DNA of 64,000 nt. It comes from Calditrichales bacterium MX18-03. GTDB lineage: Bacteria > Bacillota > Clostridia > Lutisporales > Lutisporaceae. The stretch covers positions 248,001-312,000 of the forward strand of contig JAJGRE010000004.1 of assembly GCA_021083345.1 (NCBI GenBank), given 5' to 3'. Under the pieces are notes generated by a model. It was not told where the DNA came from. It was given only the letters and a program-made list of their open reading frames with translations, and searched no databases. The position numbers and the translations under genes were made by a program. Positions within the stretch are counted from its first letter, which is position 1, and every line of letters begins with the position of its first letter. Positions 45,256-64,000 of the stretch are shown here, piece by piece.

Positions 45256-45318
45256 CCGTTTGCCCTCCGTCTTGCTTAATCTTCCTGCCCCTTAGATCTC
45301 CTGCCCATATCATAGCAT

Positions 45319-45373
45319 AAAAACAGCCCTTGAGGTAATGCATTATCACTAATGCGGCTCAAAAGCTGTTTTA
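45319..45373 (-). terminator. Hairpin between mtlA and the PfkB gene (attenuator or terminator)
   Basis: On the minus strand AAAACAGC...TTTGAG pairs with CTCAAGGGCTGTTTT, with an inner stem GCATTA/TAATGC. TTTTTA follows. It could reduce kinase expression relative to the upstream PTS genes. Confidence 0.55.
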
Positions 45374-45409
45374 TAGCTGTTCCAATTCTATCTGAATGAA
45401 TTCAGTGTC

Positions 45410-46861: not shown

Positions 46862-46949
46862 TCTGTTTCCCCCTTAACTTTATGATTTTTTCATTATCTT
46901 AAACAGTCACGCTTTATCTAGAATCAGTGACTATATTAAGCCCTGCGGA

Positions 46950-48002
46950 TCAACTTGCCAGACTTTGGCTCAGTTCAACCGCCAAACCGCACATTTCCTT
47001 GGCGGCTTGATCCATTTCCTTCATAACATCCTTCTGCACCAGTATTTTGGCATTGACATCCTCGGTAGCTGCAGCTATTTGCTGGGATGCCGCAGAGATA
47101 TTATGTACTGCATCAACAGTCTTGTTTTTATTGTCCTCCATCGCTGCGATTGATTCTTCCATCTGCCGGATATCGCTGAGAAGCTCTTCCATATATCCCG
47201 ATAATTCAGTGAACGCATGCTTTACCGTACTCACGATATCGTCCTGCTCTACTATGACTCTTCCTACGGTCTCCATGGTAAGGACCGCTTTGCTATATTC
47301 ACGCTGTATCCCTTGCATTGCTTTACCGATCTCAACAGAGGCCTCCTTGCTGGAATTTGCCAGCTTTCCGACCTCTTCCGCCACAACGGCGAAGCCTCTT
47401 CCGGCCTCCCCTGCCCTGGCAGCTTCGATGGATGCATTCAAGGATAACAGCTTCGTTTGTTCTGCTATACTTTTGATAACATCTGTAAAACGCCATATGC
47501 TCTTTAACTCGGTTCCAAAGGTATTCAGCGTTTGGATCACTTCATTCAGCTCACCTTTATTGGACCGGTTTTTCTCTTCCAATTTGAGAATGGTCCGTTT
47601 CCCATCCTCATTGGCGGATTGAATACGGCTGATTTTTGAGTTGGTCTCATAAAACTTTTCATGTGCCGATTGGATGTGGTCCGATAAGCCGATCATCATC
47701 CGGGTACACATTTCTGCCTCGCCGGCAAGGGATTCAGCGTTCTCGGCGATATCTCCAACAGATACCGTCACATGGTCCAGAGAGTGATTGCTTTCTTCGG
47801 ATTTATATGCTACGGTCTCACTGGTATCAATTAACTGCATAGAAACCATATTGATCACGGTCATCATTACTTCGAATTTTTTAACCCTTGCTTCCATAGC
47901 CGACAGCTTTGCCTTTGCGGTTTCAATCTCACTGCTGCATTCCTTGCTCCCGGCCTGCACTTTCTTCCCCAGAGTCTTTTCTATCAGACCAAATCCCAAC
48001 AC
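46950..48002 (-). CDS. Soluble methyl-accepting chemotaxis protein in the PTS operon
   Basis: A 350-residue MCP signalling protein with no transmembrane helix and no recognisable sensor domain. The hairpin-tip motif [20 protein letters not shown] and the following [16 protein letters not shown] are intact, so it should bind CheW/CheA. The N-terminal ~60 residues ([19 protein letters not shown]) form a short coiled coil. It lies between ptsH and mtlA and may report the phosphorylation state or PTS flux to the chemotaxis machinery. The start at 48002 is close to GGGGGATGG. Confidence 0.87.
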
Positions 48003-48051
48003 GAGAGCCCATCCCCCTTATTTATTTCATGCATCGGCAGCCTCTGTTTGG

Positions 48052-48318
48052 TTACAGATTCCGTATTTCTTCCTCGAAGAAGCTTTCCAGCCGCTTCATG
48101 GCCGCCTCCTGATCTTCCCCGTTTACCATGACCTCAATACTGCCTCCCGTTTCAACGCCTAAAGCCATGACGCCAATGATGCTTTTGGCAGACATTTCTC
48201 TCCCTTTATATCTTAAGACGATCTCGGACTTGTATTTTTCCGCTTCGCTTACCAGAACTGCAGCCGGCCTTGCATGCAACCCCACCGGACAGTTGATTTC
48301 AAAAGTCCTTACCAGCAT
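48052..48318 (-). CDS. ptsH: Phosphocarrier protein HPr
   Basis: An 88-residue HPr. The PEP-derived phosphate site is His15 in GLHARPA and the regulatory Ser46 is in AKSIIGVM, so it can be phosphorylated by HPr kinase. Its start overlaps the ptsI stop by 20 nt. With ptsI on the 5' side and a chemoreceptor and mtlA downstream, it is a private copy for the mannitol system or the only general PTS set. Confidence 0.95.
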   Translation of the reverse strand: MLVRTFEINCPVGLHARPAAVLVSEAEKYKSEIVLRYKGREMSAKSIIGVMALGVETGGSIEVMVNGEDQEAAMKRLESFFEEEIRNL

Positions 48319-50032
48319 AAAACCCCTCCTTCATACATTGCATGATATCCTGACTATCCGCCATATTGATAACTTTACCGGCAATCTCTGCCGCAGCTTC
48401 ATAGGAGGACTTGAGGACTGCCTCCTTCACATAAGGAATCGCTGCAGGGACCATCGAAAGCTCATCCATTCCCATTCCCAGAAGCAGAACGGCATTAACC
48501 GGATCCGATGCCATCTCCCCGCACATCCCTACTTTTATACCGTTCTCGTGAGCTGCATCGATTACTTTCTTAATCAGCCTCAATACGCCTACATTCAGCG
48601 GATCATACAAGTGGCTGATCCTTTCGTTCATTCTATCAACCGCCAGCGTATACTGGCACAAGTCATTGGTTCCTATGCTGAAAAAATCCGACTCTTTTGC
48701 CAGCAGGTCAGCAGCAACAGCCGCTGAAGGAATCTCTATCATAATGCCCACTTGTATATCCTGCCTATATGCTATCCCTTTGCGCTGCAGCTCTGCTTTC
48801 GCTTCTTCCAGGATGCGCTTCGCTGCCCTTAGTTCGGATACGCCCGAAATCATCGGAAACATGATTTTCAGATTTCCGTAGATGCTCGCCCTCAATATTG
48901 CTCTTAACTGTGTCTTGAACAGCTCGGTCTCATTGAGACAGATTCGGATGGCTCTGTATCCCAGGAAAGGATTTTCTTCATGCTGCAGATTGATTGACGG
49001 CAGCTTCTTATCGCCGCCAATATCCATGGTCCTGACGATGCAGGGGTTTCCGCCCATCAGTTCTGCCGTTTTTTTGTAAGCCTCGAATTGCTCATCCTCT
49101 GTGGGAAGACTGTTTCTATCCAAGTACAGGAATTCAGTCCTAAAGAGGCCTATGCCGGTTCCACCTTTCTCCAGCACGCAGGCAGCGTCTTCCGGCTTGG
49201 CAATATTTCCAAAGAGTTCAAGATGCCTGCCGTCTGTTGTGACCGGCTCCAAGTCCTTCAAGCGTTTTACCCGCTCTTTTTTCTCCATATCTGTATGATA
49301 TTTGGCCGTGTATGCTTCCACTTCACAGGGTATGGGATGATGGATAAGGCAGCCTGTTTCCCCGTCGATAATCACAGGATCTCCGGCTGCAATCTTGAAA
49401 ATATCGGGGCCGCAACCCACCAATGCCGGAATTTCCAATGTCCTTGCCATAATAGCGGTGTGGGAGGTTTCCCCGCCTTTCTCAATTGCAAAGCCTTTCA
49501 CATGCTTGCGGTCCAAGGATACTGTATCGCCAGGTGCAAGGTCTTTGGCTATGACAATCGTGTCCTCATCCAGATGGAAAAGATCCACCTGTGCCTTACC
49601 CAGCAGCTGGTTGATCAGGCTTTTTCCCACATGCCCTATATCTTCTGCTCTTTGCCTCATATAGTCATTGCTGATGCTCAGGAACATGGCTTTTATCTCA
49701 TCCACTGCACGTAAAACTGCTGCTTCTGCAGAGTAATGCCCATTGTTCATCTTTCCCGTAACGGTACTAATAAATACGGGATCCCTGAGAACCATCCGGT
49801 ATGCCTCAAACACCTGCGCTTCAGCTTCACCCATTATCTCAGCCGCTTTTGCTTTTGCTGCTTCCATGGTCTTTTCTGTTTGTGCCAGTGCATTCTTGAA
49901 TCTGGCTGTTTCATTCTCTATTTCCGGCTCTGATACAGTTTTTCCAGCCAAATTCTGCAGATCATCCATTTCCCGCAACACTGCAGCCTTGCCTATACCG
50001 ATCCCCTTCGAGGCAGCTATCCCCTTTAGCAT
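48299..50032 (-). CDS. ptsI: Phosphoenolpyruvate-protein phosphotransferase (Enzyme I)
   Basis: A 577-residue Enzyme I. The phospho-His motif is GGETSHTAIMAR, the PEP-binding part has GLFRTEFLYLDR, FFSIGTNDLCQYTLAVDR and the catalytic Cys in GMCGEMASD. It takes phosphate from PEP and passes it to HPr. ATG at 50032 has AAGGTGAT upstream. Order in the operon is mtlF-mtlD-ptsI-ptsH. Confidence 0.96.
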   Translation of the reverse strand: MLKGIAASKGIGIGKAAVLREMDDLQNLAGKTVSEPEIENETARFKNALAQTEKTMEAAKAKAAEIMGEAEAQVFEAYRMVLRDPVFISTVTGKMNNGHYSAEAAVLRAVDEIKAMFLSISNDYMRQRAEDIGHVGKSLINQLLGKAQVDLFHLDEDTIVIAKDLAPGDTVSLDRKHVKGFAIEKGGETSHTAIMARTLEIPALVGCGPDIFKIAAGDPVIIDGETGCLIHHPIPCEVEAYTAKYHTDMEKKERVKRLKDLEPVTTDGRHLELFGNIAKPEDAACVLEKGGTGIGLFRTEFLYLDRNSLPTEDEQFEAYKKTAELMGGNPCIVRTMDIGGDKKLPSINLQHEENPFLGYRAIRICLNETELFKTQLRAILRASIYGNLKIMFPMISGVSELRAAKRILEEAKAELQRKGIAYRQDIQVGIMIEIPSAAVAADLLAKESDFFSIGTNDLCQYTLAVDRMNERISHLYDPLNVGVLRLIKKVIDAAHENGIKVGMCGEMASDPVNAVLLLGMGMDELSMVPAAIPYVKEAVLKSSYEAAAEIAGKVINMADSQDIMQCMKEGFYAGKDF

Positions 50033-50066
50033 TATCATCACCTTAATTCGCTTATTTTTGTGCCAC

Positions 50067-51245
50067 TTAGTTCTTTTTTTCCTTTTTCGTGCTTGTTTCC
50101 AGGAAGTAATAGTTTTCCATGATTTTTTCTATGATATGGGATTCCCGGTCCAGCCCGGTTGCGGTCATGATTGCATTCCTGAGTCCGGTCTTTCGGATCA
50201 GCGCCTGCAGCTCTACGGACTGGAGATCGTTGTCAACCTGGAATCGAAATGCTGCTGCTGCTCCTATCATCAGGTTTTTAGGTTCTATGCCAAAGGTTTC
50301 CGCCAGCAGGATAGGTTTAATCAGCCTGTCGCTCTGCGAAAGCTTTCTGAGCGGTTCCCTTCCTACGCGATCTACGCTATCATCCAGGTACGGATTTTTA
50401 AATCTTTTGAGTATTTTCTCAATGTATGCCTGATGTGCATCCTTGTCAAAGCCATGTTTTCGAACCAATGCTGCACCGCTTTCCGTCATAGCGCCCAACA
50501 CGCATTCTTGAATATGCTCATCCATGATGCTCTGCCTTATGGACTCATGGCCGAAAATCTTTCCAAGGTAGGCCGTTACGGCATGCCCGGTATTCAGCGT
50601 CAGCAGCTTCCTTTCAACATAGGAAAGCAGCTTATCGGTAGTGATCATCCCCGATATTTCAGGTATTTTTCCTTTAAAGCCGGCGCCATCTACGATCCAT
50701 TCGTAAAACGGCTCCACCCTGACTGACAAAATGTTTTTCTCGTCGGCCGCCCCGGGCGGAACGATCCGGTCCACCACCGAATTCGGGAAGCCTGCATACG
50801 TCTCCGCATACTGTTTTTCTTCATCATCCAGAAAACCCATCACGGCATTTTTCAGTACCTCTGAAGCACCGAACATGTTTTCACATGCAATGATATTGAT
50901 AGGTGTCTGAATGCTTTGTACCTTGCGCCGTCTGATGCACTGGGAGATACAGGCTGCTATCTTCGGCAGCGCTACCGGTCCTACAGCGGTAGTAATCAGC
51001 TCCGCTTCCTCCGACACGCGGATCAGTGTCTCATCTTCCACCAACAGCCCCGACACGTTTTCGATGACCTGTTCCTCCATGATTTCATCAACGATAAAAA
51101 TGCTGTACTTTTTTTCTTCGTTCAATTTGCCGATAATCGCTTGATTGATGTCTGCAAACACGACATGATAGCCTGAGCGTGACAGGAGTCCGCCTATAAA
51201 TCCTCTACCGATATTTCCGGCTCCGAAATGAATAGCTGTATTCAT
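50067..51245 (-). CDS. mtlD: Mannitol-1-phosphate 5-dehydrogenase
   Basis: A 392-residue NAD-dependent polyol dehydrogenase. The NAD site is AIHFGAGNIGRGFIGGLL and the family motif KLLTLNTGHAVTAYLG carries the catalytic Lys/His region. It oxidises mannitol-1-phosphate to fructose-6-phosphate. Next to mtlF, 30 bp downstream of it. Confidence 0.95.
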   Translation of the reverse strand: MNTAIHFGAGNIGRGFIGGLLSRSGYHVVFADINQAIIGKLNEEKKYSIFIVDEIMEEQVIENVSGLLVEDETLIRVSEEAELITTAVGPVALPKIAACISQCIRRRKVQSIQTPINIIACENMFGASEVLKNAVMGFLDDEEKQYAETYAGFPNSVVDRIVPPGAADEKNILSVRVEPFYEWIVDGAGFKGKIPEISGMITTDKLLSYVERKLLTLNTGHAVTAYLGKIFGHESIRQSIMDEHIQECVLGAMTESGAALVRKHGFDKDAHQAYIEKILKRFKNPYLDDSVDRVGREPLRKLSQSDRLIKPILLAETFGIEPKNLMIGAAAAFRFQVDNDLQSVELQALIRKTGLRNAIMTATGLDRESHIIEKIMENYYFLETSTKKEKKN

Positions 51246-51275
51246 TTGTCCCTCCCCCTACTTTTACTCCCTCTG

Positions 51276-51788
51276 CTATAGCTTACTGGTAAACGCTTTG
51301 TATAGCTTATCCTTTTCCTTTGTTGCGAACAGCTCCTTCAGGAGATCTCCCTCCATTATGAATTCAGCCAGATTGCTCAGTATTTTCATATGCTCGTTGC
51401 CCTTGCCGGCTATCCCTACCACCAGGAAAGCCTTTTTGCCGTCTCCGAATTCAACACCTTCCGGGTATTGAATGACGGAAATCCCGCTCTTCAATATTTT
51501 ATCCTTTGCTGCGCCTACACCGTGAGGAATGGCAATTCCGTTTCCGATATAGGTCGTCAACATTTTTTCCCTTTCCTTCATGGCCTGTATATACTCAGGC
51601 ATGACATAGCCGCCGTCAACCAGCAGCTGCCCTGCCATTTCAATCGCCGTATCCTTGCTTACGCTTTTCTGTCCTATAAGGATGTTGCCGTGAACCAATA
51701 CATCGCTTGTCGTATCTTTGGGCTGTTCCTCCGGCAGGTTTGCTGCCTCTTGCTGATTCTTATTTTTGCTGAAAAAAGTAAAGCTCAT
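51276..51788 (-). CDS. mtlF: PTS mannitol EIIA component
   Basis: A 170-residue EIIA. The phospho-His is in GNGIAIPHG (His89), and GGYVMPEYIQAMKERE is family typical. An unusual ~25-residue charged N-terminal extension (KNKNQQEAANLPEEQ) precedes the domain. It phosphorylates the IICB permease and MtlR. Confidence 0.92.
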   Translation of the reverse strand: MSFTFFSKNKNQQEAANLPEEQPKDTTSDVLVHGNILIGQKSVSKDTAIEMAGQLLVDGGYVMPEYIQAMKEREKMLTTYIGNGIAIPHGVGAAKDKILKSGISVIQYPEGVEFGDGKKAFLVVGIAGKGNEHMKILSNLAEFIMEGDLLKELFATKEKDKLYKAFTSKL

Positions 51789-51830
51789 TTCTCCCTCTCC
51801 TTAAGTTGAATTTAATAAATATTAGAATGC

Positions 51831-53951
51831 TTATGCATGCAATTGTGTTCTCCACTCGTAGAGCTTCGTCATGTACAGTTCACTGAGCAGCTCATACAGC
51901 CTTTTACTGATCTCTTCCTCACCAGACGATTTGAGAAGCTTTTTCATATTGGAGCGACTGCTTATGAAGAGATAAAAGTCCCGCACGATGCTCTGGTACA
52001 CCATCCTTTTCGTTTCCGGCATCAACAGCACAACCACCATTTCTGCACTTCGTTCACAATATTGCTTCATCAGTTCTTTGTTGGTCCGGCACAGCAGCAG
52101 TGTATTATGGGTCCCACTCTCCAGATAGCAGCTCATTATGACACAGTCCTCCGCCAGCCGAAGTCCGTTCTTATTCAATAACTGTTTTGCTATCAGCTCT
52201 CTGTCATCCGCATCTTCGGAAAGCGCTTCGGATAGGGCTGTTATTAACTGCGCTTCATTTTTTATTTTCGGATCCGCCAGTATCCTATGGTTTTCCAATA
52301 TCTCTGTCACAAAGCTGCTATAGCTGACAATATGGGTAATATTGCTCTTTAAAAAATCCACGCTGACATTGCTGACGCTTGCTTTCTTATCCTCCGGCCC
52401 GCTCCGTCTCAACGCTTGATGGATCAGCAGCTTATCCTCCTCCAGGAGCAGTGGGTTGACGCAGATATTCTTTACAGGGCAGTTTTCAATCGGTAATGTG
52501 GAAATCACCAAATCAGCCTGCTTCTCAGAAATCAATTGGTCGGATACTTCATATGTGGACACGGTATCAGCTATCTCTATATCCTTGAATTCTTTTTCCA
52601 GACGGACGGAAAGCAGTCTTGACGAACCGATTCCACTAGGACAGGCTACGATAACCTTATACTGCCTTTTTGCGGCCGGTCTGCTTTTTTCTATAGCCGC
52701 CCCGAAGTGCATCGCGATAAAGCCGATTTCAGACTCCGGTATGTCTCTGCCCACACGCTGTTTCAACACTTCTGAAGCTCTTTCGCTGATTCTGTATATA
52801 TCGGGAAAAAGCTGCTTCAACTGCTCCAGCAGCGGGTTCCGTATATCCAGGTTCAACTCCAGCCGCCGGAGTGCCGGGTCAAGGTGACAGGCCAGGTCGT
52901 ACAGCAGCTTGTCGTTTTGCTTCAAATCGACGCCGAACTCTCTTTCAACGGTATCAATCATTTCCCAGGCTATCTGCATAAGTTCCTGCTTTGATATGGA
53001 GCCGTTTTCCCTTACTGTACCGTTATATACCCTGGCTCCTTTCAAATGCATCGTAATATAGCCTATTTCATCAATGGGTATCTCTATATCGAATTCAGAT
53101 GCTACCTTATCTGCCAGCTCACTTGCAAATACAAACTCGTTGATCCCCTTCAGCTCTTCAAGCAGCACTGGGTCGATGGAAATCTTCTCGTTATTCTTGA
53201 TTCTTTGTATTGCCAGGGCCAAATGGACCATGAGGCCTATGCTCGCACTCTCTGCCAGCCTGTATTCCAATCTCTTTTCCAGGCCGTATACGATGCCCTC
53301 AATCTTTTCTATGGAGCCCCTGTCTATCAGGTTCAACAGCCGGTTCCTGACATTGACCTGCAATACATTGGCTTTCATTCTCTTATTTGGTACGGTATCC
53401 TTAATGATCTGGATCAGTTCCTCTTCACTCAGGTTCTCATAAAGCAGGCTGATCATGGCTCTGCGGAAATCCTTCTCCTCGCCTGTTATATAGACGCCAA
53501 GTCCCGTTTTTCTGACCAGGGACAGATTGTACTTTTCCAGCCATCCCTCGACTTTATCCAGGTCATTGCTGATGGTACTGGCACTGACGCCCAGCTTGGA
53601 GGTAAAATAGTACAGCTTGGAAGGCTCTTTCTGCTGGAGCAGCTCAACCAGGAGCATTTTCTGACGGTCCTTGGGGATGTTCACAATAACGGACATATTC
53701 CCGCTGAGGATTTCCTTCAGCCTGATGCGGGTATCCTCATCGCCTGCCAGCTGAATACCCTGCCCCTGCTTTTTGATCAGCTCAAAATTATTCTTCTTCA
53801 GCCACGTCTCTACTTCAGGAATCTCTCTCAGAATGGTCCTTCTGGATACGCCGATTTCATCGGCAATTTGCTGGATAGTGACAACTGCATTTGCATCTGC
53901 AAGAAAGTGTAGAATGGATTTCAGCCTTAATTCCGGAATCATATCATTCAT
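51831..53951 (-). CDS. mtlR: Mannitol operon transcriptional activator MtlR
   Basis: A 706-residue PTS-regulated activator. Two N-terminal winged helices (VVTIQQIADEIGVSRRTILRE), two PRD domains (second ends ESEIGFIAMHFGAA), a GatB-like EIIB domain (IVACPSGIGSSRLLSVRL, phospho-Cys) and a C-terminal EIIA-like domain. Phosphorylation by HPr at the PRDs activates it and by the EII domains inhibits it. Start is ambiguous between ATG at 53951 and TTG at 53963; neither has a perfect site. First gene of the operon. Confidence 0.93.
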   Translation of the reverse strand: MNDMIPELRLKSILHFLADANAVVTIQQIADEIGVSRRTILREIPEVETWLKKNNFELIKKQGQGIQLAGDEDTRIRLKEILSGNMSVIVNIPKDRQKMLLVELLQQKEPSKLYYFTSKLGVSASTISNDLDKVEGWLEKYNLSLVRKTGLGVYITGEEKDFRRAMISLLYENLSEEELIQIIKDTVPNKRMKANVLQVNVRNRLLNLIDRGSIEKIEGIVYGLEKRLEYRLAESASIGLMVHLALAIQRIKNNEKISIDPVLLEELKGINEFVFASELADKVASEFDIEIPIDEIGYITMHLKGARVYNGTVRENGSISKQELMQIAWEMIDTVEREFGVDLKQNDKLLYDLACHLDPALRRLELNLDIRNPLLEQLKQLFPDIYRISERASEVLKQRVGRDIPESEIGFIAMHFGAAIEKSRPAAKRQYKVIVACPSGIGSSRLLSVRLEKEFKDIEIADTVSTYEVSDQLISEKQADLVISTLPIENCPVKNICVNPLLLEEDKLLIHQALRRSGPEDKKASVSNVSVDFLKSNITHIVSYSSFVTEILENHRILADPKIKNEAQLITALSEALSEDADDRELIAKQLLNKNGLRLAEDCVIMSCYLESGTHNTLLLCRTNKELMKQYCERSAEMVVVLLMPETKRMVYQSIVRDFYLFISSRSNMKKLLKSSGEEEISKRLYELLSELYMTKLYEWRTQLHA

Positions 53952-54031
53952 CAGCAGCTTCAACTCTTTTCAATAAAGTGAGGAACATTGAAACTTAGTG
54001 CCAAATCTAAATAGTCAATTTTCTTACTTTA

Positions 54032-55036: not shown

Positions 55037-55945
55037 CTAGCTGATTTCACCGGCCACCTTCTTTATCGTGTTGCTTTCGGCTTTTTCGCTGCATATATAG
55101 ACTGCACCTATAACCAATGCGCCTCCAAACAACTGTAGCAGTGTCACTTTTTCTTTTAGAATGATGCAGCTGGCTGTCACCGCCACCACAGGCACCAGGT
55201 TCATAATCACGGAGCACAGGCTGATCCCCAGGGCATCCATGGCATACACATAAAAATAGGTTGCCAGTGCGGAACAAAAGATACCCAGAAAGATCAAATT
55301 CAGGGCAATCGGTACCGTGACCGCTGCCCAATCAGTCTTTTCCAGCATGGCAAATGGGATCGTGAGGAGGGTGCCGAAAACCGTCTGGTAAAATACGATG
55401 ACCAACTCCGAGTATTTGTCAAAAAGTGCCTTGGTTGCCAGTGTATAGACAACCCATGCGACAGTAGCACCGAACATCATGGCATAGCCTGCCCAATCAC
55501 CCGTTCCGCCTTCGCCCCATAGCCCTGACTGTACAATAAAATACGTGCCTAAGACGGACAAGAGGACACTGGTCCACTTTCTGCCTGACAACCGGCTTTT
55601 ATAGGCGACTGCATCCGCCAGTATGGTCAGTACCGGTACGGTTGCAACAATCAACGAGGCAGAGGACGCCGTAATGCGTTTCATCCCGTTGTTCTCAAAG
55701 AAAAAGTATAGTGTGATTCCCAGGGCACCGGCGACAATCAGCAGCGGCAGATCCTTCTTATCCGGTCTCACCGCTGTTTTGTCAAACAATAACATGGCCA
55801 GCAGGACAAGAGAGGCGATAATAAACCGGAGCAGGGCTTGGGTCATAGGCGGAAGTACGGCCACCGTTACCTTTATGCTGAGGAAGGATAACCCCCACAT
55901 GGTTACTGCCGTAATAATCGCTAACAAAGGATAATGTTTTTTCAT
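55037..55945 (-). CDS. DMT superfamily (EamA) exporter, divergent from a MocR gene
   Basis: A 302-residue protein with ten helices in two EamA repeats: AIITAVTMWGLSFLSIKVTV at the N-terminus, NNGMKRITASSASLIVATVP in the first repeat and SVIMNLVPVVAV in the second. Exports an amino acid or related compound. It shares its promoter region (141 bp) with the MocR-type regulator, so it is the natural target of that regulator. Confidence 0.87.
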   Translation of the reverse strand: MKKHYPLLAIITAVTMWGLSFLSIKVTVAVLPPMTQALLRFIIASLVLLAMLLFDKTAVRPDKKDLPLLIVAGALGITLYFFFENNGMKRITASSASLIVATVPVLTILADAVAYKSRLSGRKWTSVLLSVLGTYFIVQSGLWGEGGTGDWAGYAMMFGATVAWVVYTLATKALFDKYSELVIVFYQTVFGTLLTIPFAMLEKTDWAAVTVPIALNLIFLGIFCSALATYFYVYAMDALGISLCSVIMNLVPVVAVTASCIILKEKVTLLQLFGGALVIGAVYICSEKAESNTIKKVAGEIS

Positions 55946-56017
55946 ATAAAGACACCTTCACATATTGATTTTGCGGACTTCACAACAGGAGCCCGGTATG
56001 CTACCCTAATAGCATAA

Positions 56018-56029
56018 GTCAAATTTGAC
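56018..56029. promoter_or_regulatory. 12-bp perfect palindrome in the EamA/MocR divergent region
   Basis: GTCAAATTTGAC lies between the divergent starts of the exporter and the MocR-type gene. It may be an operator; MocR regulators often bind direct rather than inverted repeats, so the match is only suggestive. Confidence 0.4.
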
Positions 56030-56085: not shown

Positions 56086-57495
56086 ATGATTGAATTTACT
56101 TTCACCTTGAAAAAGGATGCTGCAGATCCACTGTATGTTCAGCTCTATCGTTATATCAAGCACGCTGTTCAGAACAGAAAAATTGCCGCTGATACCCGGC
56201 TTCCCTCGGTCAGAAAGCTATCACAGCACCTGAAGGTCGGAAAAAACACGGTGGAGACCGCCTACCATCAGCTTTTAGCTGAGGGCTATATTGAAAGCAG
56301 GCCTCGAAGCGGTTATTATACCTGCTGTCTGGATGACAGCCTTGCTTTGCGAGCCGGTATGAGGCCTGAGGTGCATCCCCCGGCGCTCCGGAAAAGCACT
56401 TTGCCCTGCCATTATGACTTCCGGTACGGTCAGATCGATCCTGAGCAGTTCCCAGCAAAAACCTGGCGCAGGCTGGTTATCAAGTCAATCAGCCCGGAAG
56501 ACGCCAGTCTGTATGATTACGGGGACCGCCAGGGCGAATACGGTCTGCGTATGGAGATTGCAAAATATATCTATCCTGCAAGGGGTGCCGCCTGTTCCCC
56601 GGAACAAATCATCGTTACGGCAGGCACACAGCAGGCTCTGGACCTCATTTGCAAACTGACCCGGTCATCCAACAAACGTGCTGCAGTGGAGGATCCCGGA
56701 TATGCAGGCGGAAGACTTATTTTAGAAAGCAACGGTCTCGAGCTACGCCCCATTCCCTTGACAGCATCGGGTATCAATCTGGAAAAGCTAGCTGAAAGCC
56801 AGGCCCAGATGGTCCTGGTTTCCCCTTCGCGCCAGTTCCCGTACGGCATCAGTATGCCTATCTCAAAGCGCTTGGCACTGCTGAATTGGGCCGAGAAAAC
56901 CGGTGCCTTGATCATCGAGAATGATTACGAAGGCGAGTTCGGGTACAACAGCAGACCGATACCGGCTTTGCAAGGTCTGGACCAGAACGGCAATGTCGTC
57001 TACCTGTACACCTTTTCCAACTCATTTCTACCATCGATCCGCATCAGCTTCATCATATTGCCGGAACCTCTGCTAAAACGATATCATGATCATTTCGCCA
57101 TTCTCGAGCAATCTGTTTCAAGAATGCAGCAGAAAACCCTACAGTTTTTTATGGCAGAGGGGTATTGGGAAAGGCATATTCGAAAAATGAAAAAGCTCTA
57201 CAAGAGAAAATGCCAGCTGCTTATCGATTCCCTGTCCCTCTGCCTTGGAGATAGGGCAGAAGTAGTTGGTAGCAGTGCCGGCATGCATCTCCTTCTGAGG
57301 GTAAAAAACGGCATGGGAGAAGCGGAATTAATAGAAAAGGCTTGGGAAGCCGGCGTGAAGATCTACCCTGTTTCCAATCTTTGGATGTACCCTTCTGATG
57401 CTGAGGAAAGCCTGATACTATTGGGCTTTGGCGGGATGAAGGAAGATCAGATGGCACAGGGAGTCCGGCTGTTGAAAAAAGCTTGGTCGGTATAA
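56086..57495 (+). CDS. MocR/GabR-type regulator with the PLP lysine replaced by Asn
   Basis: A 469-residue GntR-aminotransferase fusion. The winged helix (about 1-80) has LPSVRKLSQHLKVGKNTVET. The aminotransferase-like domain has VTAGTQQALDLICKL, SPSRQFPYGISM, IIENDYEGEF and PSIRISFIILPEPLL. In the motif TFSNSFLPSIR the residue that normally forms the PLP Schiff base is Asn312 (codon AAC at 57019-57021), so no internal aldimine can form. ATG at 56086 has AGGAGCAAGG upstream. Divergent from an EamA exporter and followed by a YczE-like gene, a neighbourhood typical of MocR regulators. Confidence 0.88.
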   Translation: MIEFTFTLKKDAADPLYVQLYRYIKHAVQNRKIAADTRLPSVRKLSQHLKVGKNTVETAYHQLLAEGYIESRPRSGYYTCCLDDSLALRAGMRPEVHPPALRKSTLPCHYDFRYGQIDPEQFPAKTWRRLVIKSISPEDASLYDYGDRQGEYGLRMEIAKYIYPARGAACSPEQIIVTAGTQQALDLICKLTRSSNKRAAVEDPGYAGGRLILESNGLELRPIPLTASGINLEKLAESQAQMVLVSPSRQFPYGISMPISKRLALLNWAEKTGALIIENDYEGEFGYNSRPIPALQGLDQNGNVVYLYTFSNSFLPSIRISFIILPEPLLKRYHDHFAILEQSVSRMQQKTLQFFMAEGYWERHIRKMKKLYKRKCQLLIDSLSLCLGDRAEVVGSSAGMHLLLRVKNGMGEAELIEKAWEAGVKIYPVSNLWMYPSDAEESLILLGFGGMKEDQMAQGVRLLKKAWSV

Positions 57496-57504
57496 CCGCC
57501 AAGC

Positions 57505-58182
57505 CTATTCTGCATTTATATCCTTCTTTTTATCCGAAAACAAAACAGCAAGCAGCTTTATATCATCGTCAATGAAACGATGCTGCACTGATTTGACATT
57601 AAACTTGAAAAGCTTGAAAGCAAACTGTACGAAATATCCCACGGCTAAAGCCATAAAAAGTGTCCCGAAGCCCACAAAGCCGCCCAGAAAATAGCCGATG
57701 ACCAAGACGCACAGCTCTATGGCATTCCGGATAAATCGGACAGATCTTCCGGTTTTTTTGGTCAGTGCCACCATCATACCGTCCCTGGGACCGGAGCCCA
57801 GTCCTGCGCCGATATAGAAGTAACTGGCTATCCCGATGACAAACATGCCCGATGAAGCCATGAGTAAGCCTGGAACGATTCCTTTGCTAACCGGAATGAT
57901 GCCGTTCAACATTAACAGATCCATGAAAAGCCCGATAAACAGCATATTGCAGAGTGTTCCCCAGCCAATCCGCTCGCCCAGCAGGCTGTCTGCAATGACA
58001 AGGATCAGGCCCACACCGATGCTGGCCTGCCCCATGGTAATGCCCAGCACATTGGAAAGTCCCTGGTGGAATACGTCCCACGGTGAAAGCCCCAGGCTGG
58101 CGTTGATGGTCAGGACAATCCCCACCGCATAGAGGAAAAGTCCGGTAAACAGTCTCAGCAAACGCTGCAATACAGTCTTCAT
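57505..58182 (-). CDS. YczE/YitT-type membrane protein
   Basis: A 225-residue protein with 5-6 helices. NASLGLSPWDVFHQGLSNVL near the N-terminus and GAGLGSGPRDGMMVALTKKT in the middle are signatures of the YczE family. YczE-like genes frequently neighbour MocR regulators (as with ycxD-yczE in Bacillus), as here, where the MocR gene ends 9 bp away. A membrane role linked to secondary metabolites or transport is assumed but unproven. Confidence 0.85.
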   Translation of the reverse strand: MKTVLQRLLRLFTGLFLYAVGIVLTINASLGLSPWDVFHQGLSNVLGITMGQASIGVGLILVIADSLLGERIGWGTLCNMLFIGLFMDLLMLNGIIPVSKGIVPGLLMASSGMFVIGIASYFYIGAGLGSGPRDGMMVALTKKTGRSVRFIRNAIELCVLVIGYFLGGFVGFGTLFMALAVGYFVQFAFKLFKFNVKSVQHRFIDDDIKLLAVLFSDKKKDINAE

Positions 58183-58299: not shown

Positions 58300-59220
58300 T
58301 TACTCGTGCGAATCCCTCTTAAGCATGGTTAACCCTTTCATGTATTGCAGCAGCACGCCGAATACAATAACGCTCAGGCCGATAAAAGAGCTTAGCAGTA
58401 TTTCCTCTTTCAGAAAAATGGCAATATAAATAAGCGATATGAACGGTGTCAGGTAAAGAAGATTGGAAATGATGTGGGTCTCGCCGCCTTCCAATGCTTT
58501 AAACCAGAAGACATAGGTCACGCCGTTGATCAAAACGCCGTTCAGGATCAGCCACAGCCAAGCTCTGAAGCTGGGCAGCACAAAGCTGGAGAATACCGCC
58601 ACTGTTGGAAGCAGGAAAATCAATGCCGAAAAGAAATAGATAAAGACGCTGATGGTATTGTCGAAGCTGTACTTCTTTCCCAGTACCGAAAATAATGCAA
58701 ATATAAAGGCACCGCAGACAGCAAGCAGATCCCCGCTGAGGCTGGTTAAGCTGAGCCCTGCGATATCTCCCTTGGTCGTAATGATAATAATACCTGAAAA
58801 GCTGATCAGAACACCGATCAGCTTTTTTGCCGTTACCTTTTCCTTCAGAATGATGAAGGACAGGACCAGTACCAGCATGGGCCAGGTATATGCCAGCACG
58901 AAGCCTTCCGAAGCCGTTGTCCGCTCAAAAGCGCCGTATAAAAGGACATAATAAAGGTAATTGCCTAGAAATCCTAAAAATGCCATGATGAGATACTCCT
59001 TGCGGCTATGCTTTTTCATTTCCAATACTTTGTTCTGCGTCAGCATCAAAACCGCCATAACAAGGCAGGAAAAAACGGTGGAATAAAACAGCGTCTGCAA
59101 GTTGTCCAGCTCTATAAGGATTTTTTTCGTCACAACCGGAATGGCAGCCCAAAGCAGGATGCACAAAGCCAGGTTGAAATAGGCAATTTGCTTCTTTCTC
59201 TTTATTAATAGGTCATCCAT
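58300..59220 (-). CDS. DMT superfamily (EamA) exporter
   Basis: A 306-residue ten-helix exporter: LALCILLWAAIPVVTKKILI at the start, ERTTASEGFVLAYTWPMLV in the first repeat and ALEGGETHIISNLLYLTP in the second. ATG at 59220 has GGGGAG 7 nt upstream. Apparently monocistronic; a GC-rich hairpin (AAAGCCG/CGGCTTT, about 58235-58260) lies downstream without a clear U-run. Confidence 0.83.
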   Translation of the reverse strand: MDDLLIKRKKQIAYFNLALCILLWAAIPVVTKKILIELDNLQTLFYSTVFSCLVMAVLMLTQNKVLEMKKHSRKEYLIMAFLGFLGNYLYYVLLYGAFERTTASEGFVLAYTWPMLVLVLSFIILKEKVTAKKLIGVLISFSGIIIITTKGDIAGLSLTSLSGDLLAVCGAFIFALFSVLGKKYSFDNTISVFIYFFSALIFLLPTVAVFSSFVLPSFRAWLWLILNGVLINGVTYVFWFKALEGGETHIISNLLYLTPFISLIYIAIFLKEEILLSSFIGLSVIVFGVLLQYMKGLTMLKRDSHE

Positions 59221-59272
59221 CTCAATCTCCCCCATTATAGATAAGCTACCCTATGTGACTTCAAAAATTTAG

Positions 59273-59356: not shown

Positions 59357-62300
59357 TTACATTTCTACAAGTATTTTACTGACCTCACCTTCTCTGATAT
59401 GTCTTGAATAAGGCTCCTGTATGCTATGCCCTTCTATGTTTGCTTCACGGCCGTCAGAATAGAAAAGCCGCATTTCCCGGATTTCCGATGCTTCATCATA
59501 GGTGTTCAGCCTTTTGTCATTATGATAAACTACACGGGTTCTGCCTAAAAAGTTAAATGTTACCTGATCCTGCTCATCAAAAATCCACTCAGGAAGAATC
59601 GGCTTCAACTGAAGCACCAGCTGCCCGTCACGCACCGCAAAGGGCTTCTCGCCCGCCATCATAATTTGCCAAATACTGATGAACTCAGCAGTAGCTCCGC
59701 TCAGCCGTGCCGCAAAGCCTCTGCCATGAAGCGTTTTATCCGGGTTGGCGCTGCTGACAATGAAAGAGCTGTTCTCCAAGGGGCTCCTCCCATAGCTTTC
59801 CGGGTTGAGGAAAGGGATCATCACCTGCCTGAAATCCCGGAAAAATACTTCATATAACCGGCTTTTCAATAGTGCCAGCATGTATTTGTATTCCATGTGA
59901 AGCCAAACCGTCTCATTTTCAAACCATCCCGGTGTAAAAGCCCTTATACGTCCAATATGCATGGATTCCCCTTCCAGTGATTCATTGTTCTTATACATAT
60001 TGAGCTTCGCATCATAAAGGCTGCTTTGCCTGACCCGGTCATAGACTGCCTTTGCTTCTTCTTTCCCGTTTTGGAGCTTCATTGCCCTGACAATGCCTTC
60101 AAGAAAAATTGGCAGCTTTTTCTGACGGAAGCCCTTGATGCGGATAAGGGGTGACCCATCCCTGTCAAAACACTGCTTCCCTTTGTTGTCGAAGAGATAC
60201 TCATAATCCTCTGCTTCATAATAAAAATAGGTCGGATACATGCCGTTATTCTCTATCCACGCTTTTTCGATTGCAGTTGTCAGCTTGTGATGATAGGTTA
60301 TCAGTATATGTGCCAGCTCCGCAAGTTTTACCTGAATCTCCTGACCGCAGAAGCCTAAGCGGATTTTTTCCCGGTATTCCTCTCTCGCTGAAGCCACCGA
60401 GTCCCAGTATACGAAATCCTTGTTATCATCCGATTCTCGATGGTACCGCTCAATGCATTTGGCGACCGCCTGCACTAACGCCCATATTTCGATGGGAATT
60501 TCTATACTATCCACCCCATACCGCTCCATTGTTCCCGTTATAAAGCGCAGCAATCTGGCAAGCTCATAGCTTTCTGCCATGGAGGAACCAAATAATCCGG
60601 GCAAGCCGTTCAATGCATCATTCCAACCGGGTTTTCCGGCTTCCATTTCCACTCCCATGCCCATAGGATCAAGGGTGGAAAACTTGTTGACCGCCAGCAC
60701 CACCAACTTTACCAGCAAAGTACTATTGCATCCCCTAGCCTGTTTTCCCTCACACGGCTCAACTGTGTTCTGCTGCCTGGCCTCCCCTTTTATCAGTACA
60801 TATTTGTGCTCCCGTTTCCGGACGGCCCATTTGCTTTCATGATAGGTGTAGGTCTTGTCTTCCAACAGAAGCCGCCTCTCTTGGTCCGGATATACGGCAA
60901 GATAACTCTCAATCAAGTCCAAATTGTATGTCCAGTGGTCCGTCCAATACCCTTCATGATGCGACGCTTCGATAATCTGCCTGCATCCGGACAAAATGCT
61001 GCCTGCCAATTCATCCCGCTCCTGCGGCTTGATGTTGTCATGCGCCAATAGCAATGCATATAGCTTACCCAATGTAAACGGTTGTGACAAAAGCTTATCC
61101 AGTTCAGACTTAAGACCGTCTTCCGTGGAACCGGAATATACCCTGTCTGCATCCGGCTCAAGCATAAACTTCTGTCCGTTAAGGACCAGCGGATTGTATC
61201 CGTCCGCTTGGATCAGGTTCATGAATACCTTGATATTGAAGTCTCCGATTTCAGGGTGAAAGAAAACATCGCCCCGCCGATTTTGATTGACATCCCTGAA
61301 GTTGCCGTTGCCTGTGGAAAAGAACTCCGGCTCCGTTGCAAAGAAATTGTAATCCCGCTCCAGATCGCCGTGCTTTCTGGAATATACATAATGCACATGC
61401 TGTTTTCCACCCTGAGTCAAAAGCAACGGATATCCGCCCCGGATTAAATTGTCCAGATAGGTTTGCCTGCAGTAAGCATCAAAAGTCCGGCTTGCGGTAT
61501 GCGTGTACACTTCATCCGTCATTGGCTGTAACAGGGACTTTGCCTCGTAAGCCTTCTGCTCTATGAAGCCCGGCCGGGCAATTTTGTCTTTTATTGTGTT
61601 CAGATGCTGCATGCTTGAGACATGGCCGGCTAATGCGGACAATTGCAGCACTTGCTTGCTCTTCAACCGCTTTGAGGTACCAAAGAAAGCACAGGGTATT
61701 TTATTGACCACCGCCTGCGGCTCCCGGTACACCTCAGCAAGGCCGCCCTCAGCAAACCGCGCCGGATATCCGAAGCCTGTACGGTTCCCGAACACATTAT
61801 CCGGATCGACAACCGGTTTTAGGAGGGCAGCCTCATCCTTATCCATACAAAAGTAAAAATGACCGCCTTCAATCGGCGCCACATGATCTGTATCCTTGGT
61901 GCCTGCCCTAAGCTTGAAGAGCGGGATCCTGCTATCGGTGTTTTCTGCTGCCATCCATGCTTTCAAGGTGTTGCCCATTTCCTTTAGTTCCGCATCGGTA
62001 ATACCATAAGGAATCAGTGACGGCATACCATCCAGAACCTCAATCGTTTGCTCGTTGCCTGATATGTTTTGAATGCTTACTTGCCTTACCAAAGCAGCCA
62101 GGGGTTCATTGGGCAATACAAAATATCGGACCGTCGTCTTTATTCCCAGCCGTAAGTTGATATCTTCAAGCGTCAGATCATTGAAACCAATTATCATCCT
62201 GGTTTTTCTGCCTGAAACCGGACAAATATCCGAAAAGGGTTCGTAATGACAGGCAGCTGTGCCGCCACCCACCTTGATAAAGGTTCTGAAGCCGGAGTAC

Positions 62301-62545
62301 TCTACGTTTTGATAGCTTTTGTAGGCAGGAAAGAACTCCATGATGGGTTTATCCTTGTCTCTGATGCCGAAGGAGCAGATCCCCTGGCCGCGATTGACAT
62401 AAAATGCCCAGATGGGTATGCCTTTAAGCCCTGCGATTCCGGGCAGGAAGCTGGAAAAAGTCTTCTTTTCAGAATAGTTTTCTATGATAAACCCGTCTTC
62501 CCGGTCCAAGTAATGATCCACTCCAATTTCTAGCAAGTCTTCCAT
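59357..62545 (-). CDS. Glycoside phosphorylase of the GH94/GH149/GH161 type
   Basis: A 1062-residue cytoplasmic enzyme, longer than ordinary cellobiose phosphorylase (~800). The beta-sandwich N-terminus carries FGIRDKD and YSGFRTFIKVGGG. The (alpha/alpha)6 domain has FFSTGNGNFRDVNQNRRGD, LIQADGYNP and the probable general-acid Asp in KPGWNDALNGLPGLFG. It should split a beta-linked oligosaccharide with phosphate, giving a sugar-1-phosphate. Length and the GWNDALNG context could equally fit the beta-1,3-oligoglucan phosphorylase families, so the linkage is unassigned. Encoded after a cupin and a second phosphorylase. Confidence 0.85.
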   Translation of the reverse strand: MEDLLEIGVDHYLDREDGFIIENYSEKKTFSSFLPGIAGLKGIPIWAFYVNRGQGICSFGIRDKDKPIMEFFPAYKSYQNVEYSGFRTFIKVGGGTAACHYEPFSDICPVSGRKTRMIIGFNDLTLEDINLRLGIKTTVRYFVLPNEPLAALVRQVSIQNISGNEQTIEVLDGMPSLIPYGITDAELKEMGNTLKAWMAAENTDSRIPLFKLRAGTKDTDHVAPIEGGHFYFCMDKDEAALLKPVVDPDNVFGNRTGFGYPARFAEGGLAEVYREPQAVVNKIPCAFFGTSKRLKSKQVLQLSALAGHVSSMQHLNTIKDKIARPGFIEQKAYEAKSLLQPMTDEVYTHTASRTFDAYCRQTYLDNLIRGGYPLLLTQGGKQHVHYVYSRKHGDLERDYNFFATEPEFFSTGNGNFRDVNQNRRGDVFFHPEIGDFNIKVFMNLIQADGYNPLVLNGQKFMLEPDADRVYSGSTEDGLKSELDKLLSQPFTLGKLYALLLAHDNIKPQERDELAGSILSGCRQIIEASHHEGYWTDHWTYNLDLIESYLAVYPDQERRLLLEDKTYTYHESKWAVRKREHKYVLIKGEARQQNTVEPCEGKQARGCNSTLLVKLVVLAVNKFSTLDPMGMGVEMEAGKPGWNDALNGLPGLFGSSMAESYELARLLRFITGTMERYGVDSIEIPIEIWALVQAVAKCIERYHRESDDNKDFVYWDSVASAREEYREKIRLGFCGQEIQVKLAELAHILITYHHKLTTAIEKAWIENNGMYPTYFYYEAEDYEYLFDNKGKQCFDRDGSPLIRIKGFRQKKLPIFLEGIVRAMKLQNGKEEAKAVYDRVRQSSLYDAKLNMYKNNESLEGESMHIGRIRAFTPGWFENETVWLHMEYKYMLALLKSRLYEVFFRDFRQVMIPFLNPESYGRSPLENSSFIVSSANPDKTLHGRGFAARLSGATAEFISIWQIMMAGEKPFAVRDGQLVLQLKPILPEWIFDEQDQVTFNFLGRTRVVYHNDKRLNTYDEASEIREMRLFYSDGREANIEGHSIQEPYSRHIREGEVSKILVEM

Positions 62546-62594: not shown

Positions 62595-63002
62595 TTAACC
62601 GATAAGCTCAATAAGTATTTTCCGCTGTTCTTTGCTTAGAAAGATTTCCGGTGAGTTTGCTGCCGAGGTATCCCTGTTTTCTATGATCAGTACGGAGCTT
62701 CCCTTCGTCAATGTATGGGTGTGCCATACACCTTTCTTTACGTTATAGCATTTCAGCGGCTCCAGTTTCACTGCGTGAATGCTTTCAACCGTCGCATGGC
62801 CTTCTCCGATATAGAGTATGAAGCTGCCATTCAAGAGCACAAACACCTCATCTGTTTCGTCATGGCGCTGCATTCTGGTGATGTTTTCAGGCAGCAGCTC
62901 CTCACAGTAGTTCAGAACCGCTACCCGCCAGCTTTCATAGTCTATGACCGGCGCGTAGCCTTCTTCCGTATAGGCTTTGACTTCCAGCAATTTATCCAGC
63001 AT
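62595..63002 (-). CDS. Small cupin-fold protein
   Basis: A 135-residue single-domain cupin. Metal-binding motif 1 is MQRHDETDEVFVLLNGS and motif 2 resembles YNVKKGVWHTHTL. No enzymatic partner domain. It overlaps the end of the upstream phosphorylase gene (stop at 62992) and lies 50 bp before the second one, so it is probably co-expressed; a sugar isomerase/epimerase or sensor role is possible. The ATG at 63002 is used; an in-frame GTG at 63011 sits only 3 nt after AGGAGG. Confidence 0.8.
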   Translation of the reverse strand: MLDKLLEVKAYTEEGYAPVIDYESWRVAVLNYCEELLPENITRMQRHDETDEVFVLLNGSFILYIGEGHATVESIHAVKLEPLKCYNVKKGVWHTHTLTKGSSVLIIENRDTSAANSPEIFLSKEQRKILIELIG

Positions 63003-64000
63003 GCTCCACACCTGCCTCCTGCAGCATCGGTTCTAATACTGCCACAATATGGATCAGCTCATCGGGCGGCAGTGCAGTAAGTTTATCCCTTTCAATCTCC
63101 ATGCCTCCGACGCCGGCATTTTCTAGCAATGCATCACCCATTTGAACAGCCCGGATACGGTATTCGCCATAGTCCAACCCGTCGGGATTTTTATAAACTA
63201 CCCGAAGCTGTCTGCCTGCAAAAGCAGTGTAAACCGAAGCTTCACCGGCCTCATCAAACTGTTGCCTCATCAATTTGGGCTCCAGTGCAAGATTCCCAAG
63301 CCGACCCTTGACGCCATAGGCCTCGTTCAGCAGCGTCAGCAGAAGCCAGCTGGCGGAGCCGGTAAGATAATGATACATGCCCCTTCCTTTTTCATTAATA
63401 TACTCGGGTATGCCGGGATAAATCCTGCTCTTTTCAAAATCCCTGCAGTGCCCGTAAATGCCGTTGATTACTTCAAAGCCCTGCCGTGCAAAGCCTCTCT
63501 TATACAGGGCATTTCCGTACATGACTGCCATGTGGCTGAACATTGCGCCGTTCTCTTTGTGTCCGAAAGCGAAGCCGAAGCACCTGCCCATATTCAGCTT
63601 TACCTCGTGGAAGTCGGTATTCAGCCTGTAGCCGCCTACCTTCGCATCCTTCAGGTATCGGTCACATGCGGCAGCCAGCATCCCGACCTGCTCATCGGTG
63701 GCCACATTCCCCATGGTCGTGAATGTCTGCCCGGTCAAGGTCATCCTCACACCGGTCTCAGAATCGCCCTCTAACCGTTCTCCTGCGTTATCGTAATAAC
63801 CATTGAACCAGCCAATGCCCTCAGCGTTTTCAAGCCACTCATTGCACCTTATGTGATTGATCAGCCATGTGCCTTTTCTCTCCAAGTCATCGGCCAACCT
63901 TTTTAAGGATAACCCTGTCTTTTTACCGGAAACGCGGTGTGTACAAAGATCAAAATACTGCGCCAGCTTCTTGTTTTTTTCCTCAACAGAATCGTAATCC
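62992..64000 (-). CDS. Second GH94-type glycoside phosphorylase/hydrolase, C-terminal part, runs off the right edge
   Basis: An open frame of 335 codons continues to the window edge without a start; the coding region begins outside. The sequence reads WLENAEGIGWFNGYYDNAGE, then VRMTLTGQTFTTMGNVATDE, HKENGAMFSHMAVMYGNALY and GSASWLLLTLLNEAYGVKG. These are typical of the C-terminal (alpha/alpha)6 barrel and C-terminal sheet of GH94-like phosphorylases. Domain type is the same as the 1062-residue protein but the sequence is clearly different, so two enzymes with different linkages or chain lengths are likely. First visible gene of the operon. Confidence 0.8.
   Translation of the reverse strand, partial: DYDSVEEKNKKLAQYFDLCTHRVSGKKTGLSLKRLADDLERKGTWLINHIRCNEWLENAEGIGWFNGYYDNAGERLEGDSETGVRMTLTGQTFTTMGNVATDEQVGMLAAACDRYLKDAKVGGYRLNTDFHEVKLNMGRCFGFAFGHKENGAMFSHMAVMYGNALYKRGFARQGFEVINGIYGHCRDFEKSRIYPGIPEYINEKGRGMYHYLTGSASWLLLTLLNEAYGVKGRLGNLALEPKLMRQQFDEAGEASVYTAFAGRQLRVVYKNPDGLDYGEYRIRAVQMGDALLENAGVGGMEIERDKLTALPPDELIHIVAVLEPMLQEAGVEHAG

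What the first reader, a model, noticed from the sequence alone, without database searches (positions are those of the whole stretch)
57019..57021. MocR-type regulator lacks the PLP-binding lysine (Asn312)
The conserved TFSK motif of MocR proteins is TFSN here, with codon AAC. The numbering equals that of the PLP lysine in GabR. The rest of the aminotransferase-like domain and the HTH look intact and the gene has no frameshift, so the protein may sense a ligand or bind PLP non-covalently in a different way.
Basis: partly seen in the sequence, partly recalled or inferred. Interest (0 to 1): 0.65.

Follow-up and report, generated by a model that had tools for sequence, protein, structure and literature searches.

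The report
Regulator stripped of its vitamin-B6 anchors
A bacterial gene switch of a family thought to need vitamin B6 has lost both amino acids that normally hold the vitamin yet otherwise looks intact, and related switches in other bacteria have lost one of the same anchors several times, in one lineage clearly under natural selection to stay working.

Summary
Confirmed: codon 57019-57021 is AAC (Asn312), aligned with the Schiff-base Lys312 of GabR, in an open MocR-type gene (56086-57495, +, 469 aa). The HTH, Arg319 and the aromatic cage (Tyr206, Phe251, Tyr281) are kept. Among 131 surveyed MocR loci (a biased sample), residue 312 is K in 113, R in 9, Q in 8 and N only here; residue 279 is D in 130. 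Lysine loss arose several times. A Gln clade in Paenibacillus/Brevibacillus is under purifying selection, beside one GNAT gene family, with a conserved intergenic dyad; six of nine Arg forms sit beside pdxST or ECF S-component genes. A 2019 survey calls Asp279 and Lys312 conserved across all clusters, and I found no report of such proteins in the searched library, which lacks key subscription papers. Most likely this is a working regulator of the divergent EamA transporter that cannot use an internal aldimine; effector, DNA target and PLP binding are untested. New variant of a known kind.

The parts
56086..57495 (+). MocR-type regulator gene, 469 aa, GntR wHTH plus aminotransferase-like domain
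   Evidence: (PF00392 residues 16-78, PF00155 residues 140-429)
57019..57021 (+). codon 312 AAC (Asn) in place of the Schiff-base lysine
56920..56922 (+). codon 279 AAT (Asn) in place of the Asp that contacts the PLP pyridine nitrogen
   Evidence: role of Asp279 from PMC6917764 Table 2
57007..57009 (+). codon 308 TAC (Tyr) where 106 of 128 relatives have Gly and none has Tyr
56929..56931 (+). codon 282 GAA (Glu) where 125 of 128 relatives have Asp and none has Glu
57040..57042 (+). codon 319, Arg kept (phosphate contact in GabR by PMC6917764 Table 2)
55997..56016 (.). candidate operator dyad TATGCTA-N6-TAGCATA in the divergent intergenic region
   Evidence: an arm of 7 or more in 6% of 5000 resampled sequences
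56018..56029 (.). candidate operator dyad GTCAAATTTGAC next to the first
   Evidence: two dyads, one with an arm of 7 or more, in 1% of 5000 resampled sequences
55037..55945 (-). EamA-family transporter, divergent from the regulator; likely target (inference)
   Evidence: (PF00892, 161.7 bits)
57505..58182 (-). YczE-like membrane protein, convergent with the regulator
   Evidence: NF052291 172.4 bits, under its cut-off of 205; no Pfam match
58300..59235 (-). second EamA-family transporter upstream of the YczE-like gene
   Evidence: PF00892, 132.7 bits

Best explanation
The gene encodes a working MocR-type DNA-binding regulator whose aminotransferase-like domain can no longer form the usual internal aldimine with PLP. 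It most likely binds the dyads between itself and the divergent EamA transporter gene and controls both. Its signal is probably a ligand held without a Schiff base in a remodelled pocket, where Arg319 and the aromatic cage remain but Lys312 and Asp279 do not. Shown: the substitutions, the open frame, the conserved HTH, the concentration of changes at the PLP anchors, repeated lysine loss in relatives. Inferred: that the gene works, its DNA target, transporter control, the non-covalent ligand.
For: Of 34 columns at least 97% conserved in 111 lysine-bearing relatives, the protein departs only at D279N, D282E and K312N, and at none of the 6 in the HTH. Overall divergence is ordinary (mean identity 0.383 against 0.397). 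Kept: R319, Y206, F251, Y281, and also G180 and T309 (that the last two belong to the phosphate site is recalled from aspartate aminotransferase). Predicted fold matches GabR and PdxR (aminotransferase-like domain to 7pq9, TM 0.93-0.95 by target, 1.6-1.7 A). Two dyads in the 140-base divergent intergenic region. Relatives without the lysine are maintained: Gln clade dN/dS 0.074-0.277 in the pairs that could be measured, GNAT partner, intergenic dyad.
Against: No close orthologue in what I could search (best identity 46%), so selection on this gene itself was not measured. Its end branch is about twice the median (1.07-1.08 against 0.46-0.53). AlphaFold confidence is low at residues 281-290 (mean 59) and 311-320 (mean 74), from an alignment of 12 rows. 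The dyads are short and only modestly significant. No EamA was found beside any other surveyed MocR. EnuR Lys302His is a constitutive repressor (PMC8739950), which favours the ligand-free rival.
Confidence: 0.45

Rival explanations
1. Ligand-free constitutive regulator: the aminotransferase-like domain now serves only for dimerisation, and the protein represses or activates without an effector, like the EnuR Lys302His mutant.
For: EnuR Lys302His does not incorporate PLP, still dimerises, and acts as a constitutive repressor (PMC8739950 passages). Both PLP anchors are gone here and Gly308 is Tyr.
Against: Arg319 and the aromatic cage remain, which a purely structural domain would not need to keep. 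The Gln clade, which has also lost Arg319 and Gly180, fits this case better than the window protein does.
Confidence: 0.25
2. Still a B6 sensor: it binds PLP, PMP or another B6 vitamer reversibly without a Schiff base, as the Arg312 forms may do.
For: Six of nine Arg312 forms sit beside pdxST (L017, L042) or an ECF S component (L049, L117, L130 by Pfam; L139 by tblastn). The window protein keeps R319, Y206, Y281, F251. K-type relatives L026, L067, L068, L078 have a pyridoxamine-phosphate-oxidase-like gene nearby.
Against: Asp279 is also lost, unlike in all 9 Arg forms. No pdxS match in the genome and no B6 gene among the neighbours scanned.
Confidence: 0.15
3. Early decay: the gene is under relaxed selection and the anchor losses are among its first hits.
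For: Singleton; long end branch (1.07-1.08); 3 departures at 97%-conserved columns of the domain, reached by 2 of 111 lysine rows, z 3.8 for its identity; at 90% six departures, reached by 11 of 111, z 2.0.
Against: Two of the three departures are exactly the two PLP anchors among 34 columns and none is in the HTH; at 90% the HTH has one (I28V). Open frame, ribosome-binding site, codon usage like its neighbours (GC3 0.56 against 0.55-0.60).
Confidence: 0.13
4. Sequencing or assembly error.
For: K to N and D to N each need one base.
Against: Three or four separate codons would have to be wrong (279, 282, 308, 312), and Tyr308 needs at least two base changes if the ancestor had Gly; no frameshift.
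Confidence: 0.02

Closest known systems
PdxR of Bacillus clausii (7pq9, 7zn5)
   Same: Best solved relative by sequence (344 bits) and a closely matching fold of the aminotransferase-like domain; NCBIfam PdxR model 503 bits over a cut-off of 320.
   Different: PdxR 7pq9 has Lys and Asp at the aligned positions; the window gene is not beside pdxST and no pdxS was found in the genome.
GabR of Bacillus subtilis (4n0b, 4mgr)
   Same: Architecture, numbering at 279-319, 279 bits.
   Different: Lacks Lys312, Asp279 and GABA-carboxylate residues (H114 is Y114, R207 is G208).
EnuR Lys302His (laboratory mutant, PMC8739950)
   Same: A MocR regulator without the PLP lysine that still dimerises (passages).
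   Different: Man-made; in the wild type the lysine is needed for induction.
Gln312 MocR-GNAT clade of Paenibacillus/Brevibacillus (found here)
   Same: Natural MocR proteins without the lysine; Q clade and window protein fall in one 18-row group of the 131-row tree, but without firm support for a joint clade.
   Different: Gln not Asn; Asp279 kept; Arg319 and Gly180 lost; partner gene is GNAT, not EamA.
Arg312 MocR proteins, several PdxR-like, of Clostridia (found here)
   Same: Natural MocR proteins without the lysine; Arg319 kept.
   Different: Asp279 kept; six of nine beside pdxST or ECF S-component genes.

Membership tests
MocR/GabR subfamily of GntR regulators (by architecture) | N-terminal GntR winged helix-turn-helix of about 60 residues | tested here: met
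   PF00392 residues 16-78, 45 bits over 27
MocR/GabR subfamily of GntR regulators (by architecture) | C-terminal domain with the fold type-I aminotransferase architecture | tested here: met
   PF00155 58.9 bits over 19.7; Foldseek to 7pq9 and GabR structures
PLP-dependent MocR regulators (functional sense) | Lysine at GabR position 312 for the internal aldimine | tested here: not met
   Asn312
PLP-dependent MocR regulators (functional sense) | Aspartate at GabR position 279 at the pyridine nitrogen | tested here: not met
   Asn279
PLP-dependent MocR regulators (functional sense) | Arginine 319 at the phosphate and aromatic cage Tyr205, Phe250, Tyr281 | tested here: met
   R319, Y206, F251, Y281 (roles from PMC6917764)
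PLP-dependent MocR regulators (functional sense) | Binds PLP | not testable with these tools
   needs purified protein
PdxR | NCBIfam NF052282 over its curated cut-off | tested here: met
   503.4 bits, cut-off 320; own paralogues L143 and L144 also pass, so the model is broad
PdxR | Adjacent pdxST or B6 salvage genes | tested here: not met
   neighbours are EamA, YczE-like, EamA, SnoaL-like beyond; no pdxS match in the genome
YczR (MocR linked to divergent yczE) | yczE gene divergently transcribed from the regulator (PMC4944035) | tested here: not met
   YczE-like gene is convergent and under the model's cut-off; NF052290 YczR 137 bits against cut-off 487

The most novel reading that the evidence does not exclude
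MocR regulators have abandoned covalent PLP chemistry several times in evolution while keeping a working DNA switch. The window protein is the most extreme at the anchor pair, having replaced both Lys312 and Asp279 and put a tyrosine at Gly308, and it reads a new non-covalent ligand to control a transporter.
Probability: 0.4. Interest if true: 0.72.

Novelty: new variant of a known kind. Interest (0 to 1): 0.55.

Why it matters
MocR proteins are described as PLP-dependent, with Asp279 and Lys312 conserved across all clusters (PMC6677901, passage seen). Natural forms without the lysine, maintained under selection or lying beside B6 genes, would show that Schiff-base formation is dispensable for this regulator family. 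They would be ready natural controls for how much of MocR signalling is covalent chemistry and how much is ordinary ligand binding. The NCBIfam model already names the window protein a PdxR, so annotation by family name hides such cases.

Tried and rejected
Lysine moved to another pocket position: the query lysines rare at their columns (103, 133, 234, 369, 452) lie outside 279-319; without coordinates this is not a complete exclusion. Single origin of all lysine loss: rejected on a 43-row subset that holds 13 of the 18 lysine-free rows (p-AU 6.8e-43). Window protein as a member of the Gln clade: not supported, but not firmly rejected (p-AU 0.052). PdxR identity: rejected on context. Close relatives by a single-protein scan of genome contigs: none. 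Genus and order searches: the genus holds only this genome, the order 22 genomes. dN/dS for the window gene: not possible for want of close relatives. Papers not held: Belitsky 2014 and El Qaidi 2013 on PdxR, Bramucci 2011, Milano 2015 and the Tramonti 2018 review. A search for the B. clausii PdxR cryo-EM paper listed none. A search of plasmids by tblastn (723 records, best identity 43%) was made but its residues at 279 and 312 were not read. PlmA (PMC5083789, passages) was looked at and is a separate GntR subfamily.

Survey bias: matches were kept at E 1e-60, 1e-100 and 1e-90, with four candidates scored per genome. The alignment that seeded it held R and Q forms. So the share of lysine-free rows is not a frequency estimate. 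Two pairs of rows were identical in the tree columns. Flanks were 1.5 kb for loci from the genome search and up to 3.5 kb for genome contigs, so absent neighbours are weak evidence.

Full report
Observation. The gene lies at 56086-57495 on the + strand, 469 codons from the ATG, with AGGAG seven bases before it. Codon 312 (57019-57021) is AAC, Asn. phmmer against the PDB puts it opposite the lysine of TFSK in GabR, residue 312 in both, and of B. clausii PdxR. Pfam finds GntR (residues 16-78) and Aminotran_1_2 (140-429); NCBIfam ranks PdxR first with 503 bits over a cut-off of 320.

A second anchor is missing. In GabR Asp279 contacts the pyridine nitrogen, Tyr205 and Tyr281 stack on the ring, Phe250 lies at its phenolate side, and Arg319 contacts the phosphate (PMC6917764 Table 2, passages seen). 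In the window protein 279 is Asn (codon AAT), while Y206, F251, Y281 and R319 are kept. Asp282 is Glu and Gly308 is Tyr; D279N, D282E, G308Y and K312N occur in none of 128 relatives (the window copy and the two most distant rows, L002 and L005, left out). H114 and R207 of GabR, which hold GABA, are Tyr and Gly here.

Survey. I read residues in 131 MocR loci: 2 of the own genome (window gene and one paralogue), 49 from family, class and phylum searches and 80 named loci from genome contigs. Ten wider copies of loci already counted were left out. Position 312: K 113, R 9, Q 8, N 1. Position 279: D 130, N 1. Position 319: R 122, C 4, G 3, K 1, H 1. In the own genome, 9 of 11 other loci could be scored and all 9 have D279 and K312. 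The genus is held as this genome alone; the closest relatives, L025 and L026, are 45-46% identical and have K and D. The sample is biased, as told under Tried and rejected, so these are not frequencies.

Not general decay. At the 34 columns at least 97% conserved in 111 lysine-bearing rows, the window protein departs at D279N, D282E and K312N only, none of them in the HTH; 2 of 111 lysine rows have as many departures in this domain. At the 75 columns conserved to 90% it has six departures in the domain (reached by 11 of 111 rows) and one in the HTH, I28V. So it is somewhat, not grossly, more divergent at conserved sites, and the departures gather at the PLP site. GC3 is like its neighbours'. 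AlphaFold gives mean pLDDT 82.9 and pTM 0.72 from 12 rows, with weak stretches at the linker (83-104) and around 281-290 and 311-320. Foldseek ranks GabR and PdxR first; the aminotransferase-like domain matches 7pq9 at TM 0.93-0.95 by target length.

Lysine loss is recurrent. On a tree of 131 rows built without columns 279, 312 and 319, the states need 8 changes, and well-supported branches force at least 7 for K against the rest (quick search, several long branches, 35 of 126 inner branches open). On a 43-row careful tree with 13 of the 18 lysine-free rows, one origin for all of them is rejected (p-AU 6.8e-43); window protein plus Gln clade held together is borderline (p-AU 0.052).

Gln clade. 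In that genus 17 of 75 genomes have a match at E 1e-150; all 17 have Q312, C319 and D279, and the 28 of 136 pairs with dS under 1.5 give dN/dS 0.079-0.277. B. porteri against B. fortis gives 0.074. A GNAT gene matched by two clade queries lies beside 7 of these 7 survey rows and 17 of 17 genus rows (two loci are in both sets), and beside 0 of 113 K rows and 0 of 9 R rows. GNAT proteins of other kinds do lie beside K rows: L062, L050 and L026 (read in their wider copies L061 and L053). The GNAT-MocR intergenic region holds a conserved block with the dyad ACTGTATA-N8-TATACAGT, exact in 9 of 17 and within three mismatches in 17 of 17. The eighth Q row (L120) stands apart, keeps R319 and lacks the GNAT.

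Arg forms. Of nine R rows, two are beside pdxST (L017, L042) and four beside an ECF S component (L049, L117, L130 by Pfam; L139 by tblastn). For L012 the neighbours scanned were a ribonucleotide reductase and DUF134; for L136 and L141 tblastn found no such gene. The same genes also lie beside K rows: pdxS 25 of 113, ECF S component 8 of 113 over three queries, so the Arg forms look like their lysine-bearing kin in context. That these S components carry B6 is inference; the predicted PdxU permease of group A streptococcus, under a PdxR, is a parallel (PMC11619246, passage seen). One measurable pair of Arg forms (L117, L139) gives dN/dS 0.24.

Neighbourhood of the window gene. EamA transporter divergent at 55037-55945; YczE-like gene convergent at 57505-58182 (172 bits, under the cut-off of 205); a second EamA at 58300-59235. 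The 140-base divergent intergenic region has two adjacent dyads, TATGCTA-N6-TAGCATA and GTCAAATTTGAC; two dyads, one as long as the first, occur in 1% of 5000 first-order resampled sequences. No pdxS match in the genome. The two window EamA proteins as queries found no EamA beside any other of the surveyed MocR loci.

Mechanism. Without Lys312 the usual internal aldimine cannot form. In EnuR the Lys302His change abolishes PLP incorporation, leaves the dimer, and gives a constitutive repressor (PMC8739950, passages seen). The window protein keeps Arg319 and the aromatic cage, while the Gln clade has lost Arg319; this argues for a ligand that is still bound here, without a Schiff base. I put 0.45 on that, 0.25 on a ligand-free regulator, 0.15 on a reversible B6 sensor, 0.13 on early decay and 0.02 on sequence error.

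Known or new. PMC6677901 states that Asp279 and Lys312 are conserved across all clusters (passage seen), and PMC4944035 says YczR proteins keep both residues (passage seen). Six library searches showed no title or abstract start about natural lysine-free MocR proteins; two searches listed 40 of 309 and 15 of 197 papers. Of the papers opened I saw passages only. Bramucci 2011, Milano 2015 and the Tramonti 2018 review are not held, so earlier mention cannot be excluded.

Taxon. No name is attached to the genome. Its class code is shared by loci whose sequences equal those of named Acetobacterium and Clostridium records in the tree columns, so Clostridia is likely (inference).

Noticed in passing
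L045, L046, L074, L077, L081, L082, L138 and L154-L170: Gln312 MocR clade of Paenibacillus/Brevibacillus that has also lost Arg319 and Gly180, beside one GNAT family in every locus examined, under purifying selection, with a conserved intergenic dyad.
   Followed up: partly
L017, L042, L049, L117, L130, L139: MocR proteins with Arg in place of the PLP lysine beside pdxST or ECF S-component genes: possible PLP sensors without a Schiff base.
   Followed up: partly
window 62992-63897, 62595-63011 and 59357-62545 (-): GH94 match in a 301-aa frame followed by a 138-aa frame and a 1062-aa frame without a Pfam match; possibly one large protein split by a frameshift, or several genes.
   Followed up: no
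window 46950-48002 (-): A 350-aa protein with a chemotaxis signalling domain lies inside a cluster of PTS IIC/IIB, PTS enzyme I, mannitol dehydrogenase, PfkB kinase and PRD regulator genes (44317-53963).
   Followed up: no
own genome (G000): No pdxS (PF01680) match in a genome listed as 100% complete, so PLP presumably comes by another route or by salvage.
   Followed up: no
L064 and L015: MocR proteins that keep the lysine but have Lys or His in place of Arg319.
   Followed up: no
window 57505-58182 (-): YczE-like membrane protein convergent with a MocR gene; the published MocR-YczE pairs are divergent (PMC4944035).
   Followed up: no
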